Part shown: positions 47,801 through 53,800 of the stretch, in pieces
How the letters are laid out: each line of letters opens with the position of its first letter
Numbering within the stretch: the first letter of the stretch is position 1
NCBI RefSeq assembly: GCF_037975245.1
Contig: NC_092580.1
Location: 5,120,501-5,184,500 of the forward strand
Direction: 5' to 3'
Length of the DNA stretch: 64,000 nucleotides
DNA from: Apostichopus japonicus
Lineage: Eukaryota > Echinodermata > Holothuroidea > Aspidochirotida > Stichopodidae
Notes under the pieces: model-generated
Databases searched by the model: none
What the model was told of the DNA's origin: nothing
The model's input: the letters and a program-made list of their open reading frames with translations, nothing else
Translations under genes and position numbers: made by a program

Positions 47801-50800
47801 ACCAATTAGATTTCCCCATTTTGGTAAACATTACAAATATGACATTGCTTCATATAAACAACTAAATTCTCAAAATGAAAACCAAAGTTTGAAAAGGCCA
47901 TCACAGTGCCAATTGTCTTTAAATTGTATTCCCTTATTCATGGTCATCTTATACAGAGCCGTATCTTATAATTCCCTAAACTGAACTCCATGCAAATTCT
48001 TCAAGAGTGGTAAACTAACTTAACTATCTCGAGTCGTATTTGTAAAATGTTGTTAAAATATTGCTGTTCTTTTGGCTCCACAGCATAACATAATGACAGT
48101 TAATGGCAGCCCCCCTGAAATAACTTTTAATCATGAAATATCCCTAAGAGATGAAAACTTTGTCCCAGCCGATCCACAGATGTCGACCTCTTCACCCTCG
48201 TATCTCCTTGATCAAATCATGACGATGGTTGGGATTTTTTTCTGACGTTTACTTACCTCAATATTGTCTTCCCCAAACGTATCAGTAGCATCCTCTTCTG
48301 AATAGCCGATGGCGCCATACTCCAGCGGAGTAAACACCGTGGTAGGAACGTTTATGTAATCACACTGTGAAACGATAAAACGCACACAAAAAATCCACTT
48401 GTGAAATTGCTGAGTTTGTTTCACATTCAAATCTATCAGACATATCACTCTAGTTCAACATTTTACAGAATATTAAGCAGAACACAATTGAAAGATCCTG
48501 ATATTCGATATCTTCAAATTAAAACAGAAGTTCAAGCCAAGAAACGCAATTTGAAGATACAGAAAATTCTACATTTCTACATTTAACAAAATTGTAAAGC
48601 CTAGAAAATACAACTAGAGGGATACTGAAAACTGGAGTTGAAAACTCACCTGTCTCGATGAGTCACCGTACAATCTCCTTGAGAGGAGTTTGCCTGCCTC
48701 TATGGCAACTGGAGTGAGTTCATGGCCGCCCTCCATGATGTCACCGATCGCATAAATGTTAGGAACATTGGTCTGCTCGTTCACAACCGGGATTTTCCCG
48801 TTCCTGTGAAGGATGAATGATACATATAGTGGAAGTAGAACATAAAATAACTGGTGAAAGAAGAACAATAACTTACCAGTAAAAGAACAATACCTTACCA
48901 GTAAAAGAACAATACATAATCTGTGAAAAAACAAAACTTAGCCAGTGTAAGAACAGTACATAAGTAGTGAAAAAAACAATACATAACCCGCAAGAGATAA
49001 ATACACAACCAGTGTAAGAACACAATACATGAACAATGAAAGAACATTATACAAATGGTTGAAAGAAAGTTTCATTTATGGTGAAAGAACAATACACCAC
49101 TGTTAAAAGAAAAAAAATTATCAACAGTACCATTCATTCTTCATTCAACAACCAAACGGACAAGATAACAAAACATTTATGACAACCTTTTGTGGGAATG
49201 CCAAGCTAAAGAAATGAGAGTTACTTACAAGCTTCAATACAAGAAATGCAAAACTACACATATTTTATAACAAACAACTTACAGCAAAATGTGTACTAGG
49301 GAAACAACAAAAAGGGATACATTTTACAGTGATTTCAAGAGAAGATTTTTGTAACATTTCCATTAATAGCCGTAAACAATCTCTACTGTTTCAAATATGC
49401 GGAAAGACTTGAAAGTGGTCACAATAGCAGCAGACAGACAGTAAAGAATGAGCAGAGAGACAGGCAGTAGCAGTAGATAAAAAGGAATGGGCAGACAGAC
49501 AGACAGGAATGGGCAGACAGACAGACAGGAATGGGCAGATAGACAGGGACAGGCAGACAGACAGACAGGGACGGGCAGACATAAAGGAATGGGCAGACAG
49601 ACATAAAGGAACGGGCAGACAGACAGAAAGGAACGAGCAGCAGACAGACAGTAAAGAATGAGCAGAGAGACAGACAGGGACGGGCAGAGAGACAGACAGG
49701 GACGGGCAGAGAGACAGACAGGGACGGGCAGACAGGGACGGGCAGACAGGGACGGACAGACAGACAGGGACGGGCAGACAGACATAAAGGAATGGGCAGA
49801 CAGACATAAAGGAACGGGCAGACAGACAGAAAGGAACGAGCAGACAGACAGAAACGGGCAGACAGACAGGAACGGGCAGACAGACAGGAACGGGCAGACA
49901 GACAGGAACGGGCAGACAGACAGGAACGGGCAGACAGACAGGCGGTAGCAGCAGAAAGAAATTCTAAAAGGAACACATAGGATTCTAAGTTTCCTTCCAA
50001 TCCACGGTTTTACAGTGACCAGTGATAGTGTTGATTAAACTTGCACTTACTTTGGGTTCGTTAAGACTCCAGTTTTCTCAAGGCCGATCTCACTGGTGCA
50101 GGCATCACGACCAATTGCCATTAAAACCTTTTTGAAAAATTGAAATAAAATGAAGCAGTGAAATATTCATGTAATAGAAAAACATGCTTAAGGCAAACCT
50201 ACCACCAAGATATACACACAGAGTTATTAAAATCTAATACTGAATTAATGTTTTACTACATAAAACCAGCATCATTTTGCATAACTATTTGAAACTAATA
50301 TTGAATAACTATTTGAACTTAAACAGTCTCTATCAACTGAGCTACCGAGCCTAAGACACTCATAATTGAGAAAATTATCTTTCGTTGAAAGTCATAACAG
50401 CTCTTCCTTCAGATCACACATTATTACCACGATGTTTACCAGTTATCAGAGAAGGCCCTCTTGCTCTCCGTTTATGACTTTGAAGGGAATGGCAAAAGTG
50501 AGAAGTTTTTCGAACCAGAATTCCAAATGGCTATATATTGCAGTACGAAAATTTGTACGTGGTAATTATGTTATTATTAACATTAAAGTTTGTATCAATA
50601 CGTAGTTCCTTATCACTTGTTTCCTTTCTGTGTTTGCATCTATGCTGTGTTCACATCTATCCTGATTTCCTAAGAATCATTTGTTTTCTTAGTATGTTCA
50701 CATCTACACCAGTCTCCTAATGATGACTTGTTTTCTTACTGTGTTCACATCTACACCGATCTCCTAATGATCACTTGTCTTCTTACTGTGTTCACATCTA

Positions 50801-53800
50801 CACCGATCTCCTAATGATCATTTGTTTTCTTACTGTGTTCACATCTACACCGATCTCCTAATAATCATTTGTTTTCTTACTGTGTTCACATCTACACCGA
50901 TCTCCTAATGATCACTTGTCTTCTTACTGTGTTCACATCTACACCGATCTCCTAATGATCACTTGTCTTCTTACCGTGTTCACATCTATACTAAATTCCT
51001 GAGGATCATCTGTTTTCTTGTAGTAGACTCTCAACAACGGTGGGGTTCCTTCTTCAATCTGCTCAATCTATGGAAAAGAAGCGAGAGCTCATTTGGTTGT
51101 TTAAACATCGAGGATCGCTGAAAAACATTTGCCCCAGAGGCTCACAGAAGAGAATGTGGAGCCCTGCAAAGGGGCTTGCACAATCCATGGCACAACTTTG
51201 ATCTAGTAGAAAGTGTGATATGCTGTATCAATTACAACTACAATTAACTAAGTGATCAAGCCTGGCTATGCAGGGCTCCTGATTCTCACTGCCTACACTG
51301 TACTCACCCTTGTTGGTACGCACTTACGGAGGAAGTGCGTGCCGTGTTTCTCCATGTACGTGCCGATCATGTCTGCCATCTGCTGGTCGAACCCCCTGAG
51401 GAGAATGGAACGAACCATCACTGTGACATCCAGACCCATTCCGGTCAGGAAACCGGCGCATTCCAGAGATACGTACGAGGCACCGATTGTAAGCGTCTTT
51501 CCCGGGCAGTAGCTCAGGGAAAACAGGTCATCGCTGAAATGGAAAAAAAGAGATCAAAGAATGGTTCCGAATGACATTAGAAATCTGTTTAGTCGGTGGC
51601 GAAGATTTCCAATGAAGAAGGCAACCTTTCCAAATCAAAATGAAGGCAGTAGATTGGTCCAGAGGGATACAGACAGTGATGGGTCAAAGGTCTTATGACA
51701 TCCCAGGATAAATCACAGAGTATGATGCAGAGGGTTAGTGTTTCTTTCATGGCCTTAATTCAGATTTACTTGAAGTTTATGCTAAAGTCTGCTCTGCCAG
51801 AACGCTTCCAAATATGCTTTTGTCTTCCTCAAGTCTTTTCTTGAGCTCGAGGACATTATTCAGTAACTTCTTCAACTTGGGGCTTTGCAATATTTATCGT
51901 CATTTTTTGTTTTGTTTATACAAATGCTTTCTGTATATTGCTTTACTCCAGTTAATCGTTCTTGCAAATGTTTTTGAATGATAATAACAGGATCATTTGC
52001 ACTCAATCTTGTGTATATGTGTATAAGTAAGACTAACCAGAGACATGGAACCAACCACCACATCCCTTTAAGTGTTAACATCTACACACAAGATAAACAA
52101 ATTGTTTTTGAGAACTGTGAAATCTGGATAAAATGCAGAAAGGTTTTAATATGTACACGATAGACATTCTCTCAGTAAAAGGCTTCAACATTGTTTCCTC
52201 TGAAAGAGACTTATTAAACTCTCACAAGCCCAGTTGCTAATCTTGTTCCTCAGGGATGTGCCTAAGAGATTTTATGTCAAAAACTCCAACCTACCATCCA
52301 TTCACATACTATGTTTATTTCCTAATGAACTTTCTATTGGATTTGCCTGTAATTGCAAAAGCATACTTGCTATAAAGGAAACAGCTTTGCAAGAAACCTT
52401 TAATATGAAGATTGGAATAAGTCTTTGTCTGAAACACAGATCAACTAAGGATTTAATGTTATCAACATTTTACCAAACCTGCAAAATATTAAACAAGCTA
52501 TGGTTAATCTCCCACAATTGTGTTAAATCTAAACTATCCAATTAAAGCATATAAATATTTGTCTTCAGACAGCACCTCACTCTAGATACCTTGCTATGTA
52601 GGTAACATACACATGTCGGATACACCACACTGAATATCCTTTATTTATCAGGTGTTAATTAACAACTTAAACCCTTCATTTGTCACAAAGCCCTCTCACA
52701 CTCTGAGACGAAACTATCCATTGCTCTCAGACGACAAGGTGAACTTCTCTATGACTGTGGCAGACAGTGTATTTATAATTCCATGTGACTTAAACAGTGA
52801 GCTACACATTCAGATGAAAGTATTTTCCTTATCTCTCCACTCTTTCCTCAGTCAGGATGTATCAAGTTAAAACATACTACAGCATTCATTACCTTGTTAT
52901 TGCAAACTCCTTCACCCCTGGTATGTCTGGATACCGTGGTCTCATCCCGGTGGCCAGTAGAATCTTCTCTGCTTTGAAAGTCTGCACTTTGTTCCTTTTG
53001 TTAACGGTCTGAAAAGAACAATGGAAGCCCCCAAAACAAAGTTTAACGATGTTATAGTATCATACAGGCCTTTTAGGCTCTTTCATTTAACAAGAATGGT
53101 CATTTGACAGAGGGAAAAAATAGTTAAAAACATCACAACAACAGACAAACACATCTGATCTATTAATCTACAACACATACAATATATCTACAGTTGGTGT
53201 TGACCAAGGATTATAACATAAACCCAACAAAGTTACAACAGAAAAGTGCTCAAAATAGCCTCTCTTACAGCCTGCTGATTTAGATGATATCCAAATCAAA
53301 ATTTAACATATTCTAGCTGTATATTCTAACTACATATTCTATCTATATATCTGCATCTAACTATATATTATGTAATTCCATGCATCTAACTACATACATC
53401 CCTTGGCTGGGCTTCGTTATCTACCGTACAGCATCTTTTATGCTGAATGGTTTTGTGAGATCAAATTACAACGCAAAGAACAAATATCTGGCTTGCTTTC
53501 AATCGTTTTTACCTTTTCGATATCGATTTGAACTATTTTAGTTTTAACTTGTGACATCATATAAAGAAAAAAACTTGGTAACACATTAATTAATCTGATT
53601 ATTAGCCTTAAAGTCGCTGTTACACTATAATGCTTACACTACAAAATTCCAATCACAGTTGATGTTTGTGACCTTAGTACCGGATGTGTACAAAAAAGGG
53701 GAGACCCTGAAAATGCCATCCGTTACTGAATTATGCCAACTAACCTTGACTGTCGCCTTGGACGATCGTGTAACATAATTTGCACTGATAAATGAATCTC

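What the first reader, a model, noticed from the sequence alone, without database searches (positions are those of the whole stretch)
50641..51067. Tandem array of decoy 5' splice sites made from a real exon end
The 3' end of TGR exon H plus its donor (GATGTGAACACG|GTAAGAAG) is the terminal member of a 47-bp array whose seven further copies lie just downstream in the intron, all at exact 47-bp spacing and each keeping a near-perfect donor (ACA|GTAAGAAG). The copies carry an in-frame stop-like TAG where the exon has a Gln or Glu codon. Using a downstream donor would extend the exon by multiples of 47 nt, shifting frame or adding a stop. The array could reduce full-length selenoenzyme output or tune it through nonsense-mediated decay, and copy number may vary between individuals.
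Basis: partly seen in the sequence, partly recalled or inferred. Interest (0 to 1): 0.72.

Follow-up and report, generated by a model that had tools for sequence, protein, structure and literature searches.

The report
Exon-derived repeat with weak donor copies
The end of one exon of an animal selenium-enzyme gene has been copied in tandem into the following intron, giving a row of weak imitation splice sites; this is a real but probably passive repeat of a kind already described in human genes.

Summary
The minus strand carries a thioredoxin-glutathione reductase (TGR) gene (14 exons in the model, the first cut by the window edge). Exon 8 (51067-50975) is followed by seven 47-bp units (50974-50646) in exact register. 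Corrections: five of the seven further boundaries keep GTAAG, not seven; the five lack the -1 G (ACA|GTAAGA against ACG|GTAAGA) and rank below the gene's 13 modelled donors by a recalled generic matrix and by U1 pairing energy. The stop is the exon's own out-of-frame TAG brought into frame by the 47-nt shift, not a changed Gln/Glu codon; every downstream donor and intron retention give the same stop. New here: the last 45 nt of the exon, not just 12, match the unit (24 of 29 in columns 3-31 against unit 6; maximum 19 at 127,002 other positions). AAGAA shared by exon and donor lies exactly 47 bp apart, suggesting how the duplication began. Human ABCA7 and IFI6 show the same architecture, so this is a new member of a known kind, most likely passive. 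No RNA data or related species could be examined.

The parts
50975..51067 (-).
   Evidence: splice model; gap-free alignment with TrxR1 chains (to the exon end; across the junction)
50975..51019 (-). Last 45 nt of exon 8: ancestral copy of the unit (columns 3-47)
   Evidence: 24 of 29 in columns 3-31 against unit 6; 38 of 45, the other 25 exon-end/intron comparisons at most 26 of 45
50973..50974 (-). Authentic exon 8 donor GT (ACG|GTAAGA)
   Evidence: 4.61 bits, U1 -8.2 kcal/mol
50646..50974 (-). Seven intronic 47-nt units (0 to 6); distal unit 6 (50692-50646) is closest to the exon
50926..50927 (-). Copy donor 1, ACA|GTAAGA
50879..50880 (-). Copy donor 2, ACA|GTAAGA
50832..50833 (-). Copy donor 3, ACA|GTAAGA
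50785..50786 (-). Copy donor 4, ACA|GTAAGA
50738..50739 (-). Copy donor 5, ACA|GTAAGA
50691..50692 (-). Boundary 6, donor lost (ATA|CTAAGA)
50939..50941 (-). TAG, first in-frame stop of any transcript that extends exon 8 through the array or retains intron 8
   Evidence: first stop at residue position 338 for extensions of 47 to 329 nt and for intron retention; coordinates counted from the translation
50599..50645 (-). Possible decayed remains of further array sequence (boundary GCATAG)
   Evidence: one search shows no 47-nt register here; TRF 17-nt row 50628-50664; relation seen by eye only
50128..50974 (-). Intron 8, 847 nt
   Evidence: exon borders
50051..50127 (-). TGR exon 9 ([11 protein letters not shown]...)

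Best explanation
A passive exon-edge minisatellite. Inferred history: the last 45 nt of exon 8 plus the GT of its donor were duplicated in tandem, helped by AAGAA present both at exon -45 to -41 and in the donor at +3 to +7, exactly 47 bp apart. A duplication between these two AAGAA copies recreates GTAAGAA at each new boundary and leaves the original exon end and frame untouched, so it could survive. The array then expanded in its middle. In the present sequence the authentic donor is the only boundary with G at -1; the five surviving copy donors have A there and pair less well with U1, so the authentic donor should be used nearly always. Rare use of a copy, or retention of the intron, meets the same TAG at intron bases 34-36 and should be removed by NMD. 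Shown: the array, the homology, the donor sequences, the stop. Inferred: the duplication route, the splicing outcome, NMD.
For: Array in exact register. Exon-unit homology above background: 24 of 29 against a maximum of 19 at 127,002 other positions for unit 6 columns 3-31; 38 of 47 against 28 at 126,966 positions over all columns. Homology starts at column 3: columns 1-2 (AC in the exon; GT or CT in the units) differ while AAGAA at columns 3-7 matches in all seven units. Of 26 exon-end/intron comparisons (up to 1,000 nt of adjacent intron; exon 1 head and exon 14 tail not tested) the exon 8 tail gives 38 of 45 and the other 25 at most 26. The exon is in place relative to TrxR1 without an indel, so the exon is taken as the source. 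Copy donors rank below the 13 modelled donors by both measures. Same stop in all alternatives, 581 to 769 nt before the last exon junction for the five copies with GT. No unusual folding of exon plus array (z 0.28). The window is rich in tandem repeats (55 TRF rows, overlapping rows included).
Against: The strength measures are a recalled human-like matrix and a bare U1 duplex; the species is unknown. On the matrix the copies (0.51) are only just below the weakest modelled donor (0.81). Exon 9 of the same gene is spliced from a -1 A donor (AAA|GTAAGT), so -1 A does not bar use. Against the unit consensus the exon match in columns 3-31 is only 21 against a background maximum of 20. Donor columns 1-6 are invariant in units 0-5, although this has chance 0.36 given 7 variable columns. 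Copies nearer the acceptor can be favoured when strengths are equal (recalled, not read). AAGAA is weak evidence alone: 27% of 93-nt segments of this coding sequence contain it.
Confidence: 0.72

Rival explanations
1. Functional decoy array: U1 bound to the copies competes with the authentic donor or promotes intron retention, so that copy number sets the fraction of TGR mRNA sent to NMD.
For: Five copies of ACA|GTAAGA with five predicted base pairs to U1; every alternative gives one shared early stop. In human ABCA7 an exon-flanking VNTR whose units start with the donor GT gives single-unit retention with a frameshift, about 2% as I read the passage (PMC5954066).
Against: Copies are weaker than the 13 modelled donors of the gene. 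In ABCA7 the unit-retention level was not affected by VNTR length. No sign of selection on donor columns (chance 0.36).
Confidence: 0.15
2. The array affects splicing of exon 8 or 9 without use of the copy donors, by repeated protein-binding motifs or by intron length, as proposed for ABCA7 exon 19 skipping.
For: ABCA7 exon 19 skipping rises with VNTR length (PMC5954066, passages). Intron 8 is short (847 nt) and the seven units (329 nt) are 39% of it (coordinates).
Against: Nothing in the window tests it; only seven units here, against about 12 to 427 in ABCA7.
Confidence: 0.08
3. The exon end was itself made from the intronic repeat (exonisation) rather than the reverse.
For: Exon and unit are homologous over 45 nt, which alone does not give direction.
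Against: The exon codes for residues that align with TrxR1 chains without a gap across the junction, and the distal unit 6 is nearest to the exon (38 of 47), as expected if exon sequence is ancestral.
Confidence: 0.04

Closest known systems
ABCA7 intron 18 VNTR, human (PMC5954066; start of abstract in the listing, passages, section 18)
   Same: Exon-flanking minisatellite whose first two bases are the authentic donor GT; use of a donor one unit further extends the exon by one out-of-frame unit, giving a premature stop and NMD.
   Different: 25-bp unit, about 12 to 427 units, polymorphic in people, C-rich; the parts read do not speak of an exon-derived unit. Here 47 bp, seven units, exon-derived, copies weakened at -1.
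IFI6 (6-16) minisatellite, human (Turri, Cuin and Porter 1995; paper not held; known here from its title and one sentence in PMC4526556)
   Same: Tandem repeat that supplies several donor sites; two downstream repeat units are used as donors.
   Different: Gives three mRNA species that encode IFI6 isoforms; here any downstream donor truncates the protein.
Variable internal tandem repeats at exon-intron boundaries in human segmental duplications (PMC2812944, passages)
   Same: Minisatellite expansion (about 30-bp units) at exon-intron boundaries.
   Different: There exons or introns are modified and novel introns may form; here the coding exon is unchanged.
[quoted passage not shown] Drosophila near intron pairs, PMC2891723, passages)
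   Same: Tandem duplication of sequence that carries splice signals.
   Different: No new intron arises here; the copies stay inside the existing intron.

Membership tests
Exon-flanking minisatellite with donor-bearing units (ABCA7/IFI6 kind) | Tandem array in register that begins at the authentic donor | tested here: met
Exon-flanking minisatellite with donor-bearing units (ABCA7/IFI6 kind) | Further units keep a GT donor | tested here: met
   5 of 7 further boundaries keep GTAAG
Exon-flanking minisatellite with donor-bearing units (ABCA7/IFI6 kind) | Downstream donors are used in transcripts | not testable with these tools
   no RNA data
Exon-flanking minisatellite with donor-bearing units (ABCA7/IFI6 kind) | Copy number varies among individuals | not testable with these tools
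   one sequence only; no genome held
Intron gain by tandem duplication | A new intron arises from the duplicated segment | tested here: not met
   single intron 8 in the model; exon unchanged relative to TrxR1 chains
Animal Sec-containing thioredoxin-glutathione reductase gene | Grx part, reductase domains and C-terminal GCUG | tested here: met
   residues 2-537 align to positions 59-596 of PDB chains named thioredoxin glutathione reductase (2x8c, 2v6o); TGC TGA GGT TAA at the end. The Grx part is only partly in the window
Animal Sec-containing thioredoxin-glutathione reductase gene | SECIS element in the 3' UTR | tested here: inconclusive
   no SECIS family among matches in the window at gathering scores or in 40300-44830 at E up to 5; 3' UTR extent unknown

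The most novel reading that the evidence does not exclude
A donor site can seed its own tandem duplication: a chance AAGAA in the exon pairs with the AAGAA of GTAAGAA, and every slippage step reproduces a full donor in the intron without touching the exon or its frame. Exons with A-rich GAA motifs would then be recurrent sources of decoy donor arrays, kept nearly silent by A at -1 in the copies, and here setting a low NMD drain on a selenoenzyme.
Probability: 0.12. Interest if true: 0.55.

Novelty: new member of a known kind. Interest (0 to 1): 0.3.

Why it matters
It gives a clean natural series of donor copies next to their exon source, in which the authentic site differs from the five copies inside -3 to +6 only at -1. 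That would let one measure how much a single exonic base shields an exon from tandem decoys. It also points to a simple, checkable route (AAGAA microhomology) by which donor arrays like the one in ABCA7 could start.

Tried and rejected
Decoys as near-perfect donors: rejected on sequence and score. One search used a wrong position for the exon 7 donor; one search corrects it. Stop created from a Gln/Glu codon: rejected. Special RNA structure of exon plus array: z 0.28, 62 of 100 shuffles fold at least as well. Selection on donor columns: no support (chance 0.36). Complementarity between the intron 9 pyrimidine array and the exon 10 acceptor (11 nt, ACAGGAACGGG): 0.67% of 1,485 random 60-mers reach 11 nt and 26 splice sites were compared, so about 0.17 expected by chance; dropped. 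Unit sequence in viral contigs: 0 exact matches, uninformative. I made no other search of the prokaryotic, viral, phage or plasmid collections, because the gene is animal. Papers on competition between donors: two listed, neither read, one on spliceosome E complex and one on enhancers. TGR alternative splicing: two papers listed, neither read.

Full report
The gene. The window's minus strand holds a TGR gene. Fourteen exons, the first cut by the window edge at 64000, join into one open frame of 537 residues up to a TGA, followed by GGT TAA, as expected of a GCUG selenoenzyme end. I set the borders by eye and by string search, using GT-AG and the reading frame. The product matches PDB chain 2cfy (thioredoxin reductase 1; human, as recalled) at E 5.3e-224 and, over residues 2-537, chains named thioredoxin glutathione reductase (2x8c, 2v6o; Schistosoma, as recalled). 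Exon 8 is 51067-50975, intron 8 is 847 nt, exon 9 is 50127-50051. In the printed alignment with 2cfy the only gap lies in exon 10; exons 7 to 9 align without one. The species is not known to me; no genome is held.

The array. TRF reports 47 bp, 7.3 copies, 91% matches. In register from the donor there are seven units, 0 to 6, at 50974-50646. Units 0, 1 and 4 are identical; 2 and 3 differ from them by 3 and 2 bases, 5 and 6 by 5 and 9. After unit 6 the register is lost; a short TRF row at 50628-50664 and inspection by eye suggest a decayed further copy.

Origin from the exon. In fact the last 45 nt of exon 8 align with the unit without a gap. Leaving out the last 16 columns, columns 3-31 match unit 6 at 24 of 29, against a maximum of 19 at 127,002 other positions on both strands; against the unit consensus the figures are 21 and 20, a much weaker margin. 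Over all 47 columns they are 38 against 28 for unit 6 and 35 against 26 for the consensus, at 126,966 positions. The same kind of test for 13 exon tails against the downstream intron and 13 exon heads against the upstream intron (up to 1,000 nt each) gives 38 of 45 for the exon 8 tail and at most 26 for the other 25. Unit 6, farthest from the exon, is nearest to it in sequence (38 of 47), while units 0 to 5 score 33 to 36. This fits an old first copy with later expansion inside the array.

How it may have begun. Columns 1-2 differ between exon (AC) and all seven units (GT, or CT in unit 6), while columns 3-7 (AAGAA) agree in the exon and all seven units. AAGAA lies at exon -45 to -41 and at intron +3 to +7, 47 bp apart. 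Slippage or repair between these would duplicate 47 nt that end in GT, so each new boundary reads GT-AAGAA and the original exon end is kept. This is inference. AAGAA occurs in 27% of 93-nt segments of this coding sequence, those of exon 8 included, so the coincidence alone is weak.

The copy donors. Boundaries below the authentic one read ACA|GTAAGA at five places; the sixth is ATA|CTAAGA and the seventh ACA|GCATAG. The authentic site is ACG|GTAAGA. ACG and ACA both code for Thr, so the -1 G is not needed for the protein. With a generic matrix (recalled, human-like) the copies score 0.51 and the authentic site 4.61; U1 duplex energies are -4.5 and -8.2 kcal/mol. The 13 modelled donors of the gene range from 0.81 to 9.24 bits and from -6.0 to -12.3 kcal/mol, so the copies lie below each of them, though only just below the weakest on the matrix. 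On the transcript strand 280 of 3,903 GTs reach 0.51 and 555 of 3,900 reach -4.5 kcal/mol, copies and real donors included. In intron 8 itself, 50202 (GTG|GTAGGT, 3.55) and 50439 (CTG|GTAAAC, 1.31) outscore the copies. Against this reading, exon 9 uses a -1 A donor.

Consequence of use. Extension by 47 to 329 nt in steps of 47, or retention of the intron, all end at the same TAG after ...[14 protein letters not shown]; for the five copies that keep GT the stop is 581 to 769 nt before the last exon junction. The stop is the exon's own out-of-frame TAG (columns 34-36) read in frame because 47 is not a multiple of 3. Under this model the copies cannot make a full-length alternative protein; they can only lower output, by NMD if the general rule holds in this species.

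Precedents. The human ABCA7 VNTR starts with the exon 18 donor GT; retention of one 25-bp unit causes a frameshift and stop. The passages read give 14 +/- 6% and 2 +/- 1% for the two frameshift isoforms, in the order cryptic acceptor and unit retention as I read them, with no effect of VNTR length on these two, while exon 19 skipping rose with length (PMC5954066). IFI6 uses two downstream repeat units as donors (one sentence in PMC4526556). The architecture is therefore known. In nine searches of the paper library (one search failed) I did not meet a case stated to have exon-derived units with an AAGAA origin, but I saw listings, abstracts and passages only, and one section of one paper.

Verdict. 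The most likely state is passive, with trace mis-splicing into NMD.

Noticed in passing
window 48861-49028 (minus), intron 9: A second array (22-bp units) carries two better intronic donors, CTG|GTAAGG (48898, 5.95) and CTG|GTAAGT (48876, 6.39), 22 nt apart and just below an acceptor-like TTTTGTTTTTTCACAG ending at 48921; they would define pseudo-exons of 22 or 44 nt, neither a multiple of three. By score these are stronger decoy candidates than those of the finding.
   Followed up: partly
window 49429-49943 (minus), intron 9: Pyrimidine-rich minisatellite with 4 copies of an 11-mer complementary to the exon 10 acceptor; about 0.17 such matches expected by chance over the 26 splice sites compared.
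   Followed up: yes
window 1429-5500: Long tandem-like repeats of about 568 bp, seen by eye as recurring translated frames.
   Followed up: no
window 9164-10393 (+): Reverse-transcriptase-like frames, probably of a non-LTR element (by eye; no family search made).
   Followed up: no
window 40210-40282 (-): tRNA match by Rfam (40.6 bits) that ARAGORN does not report; may be a tRNA-derived repeat.
   Followed up: no
window 40300-44830: No SECIS match below the TGR stop at E up to 5, although the gene ends in TGC TGA GGT TAA.
   Followed up: partly
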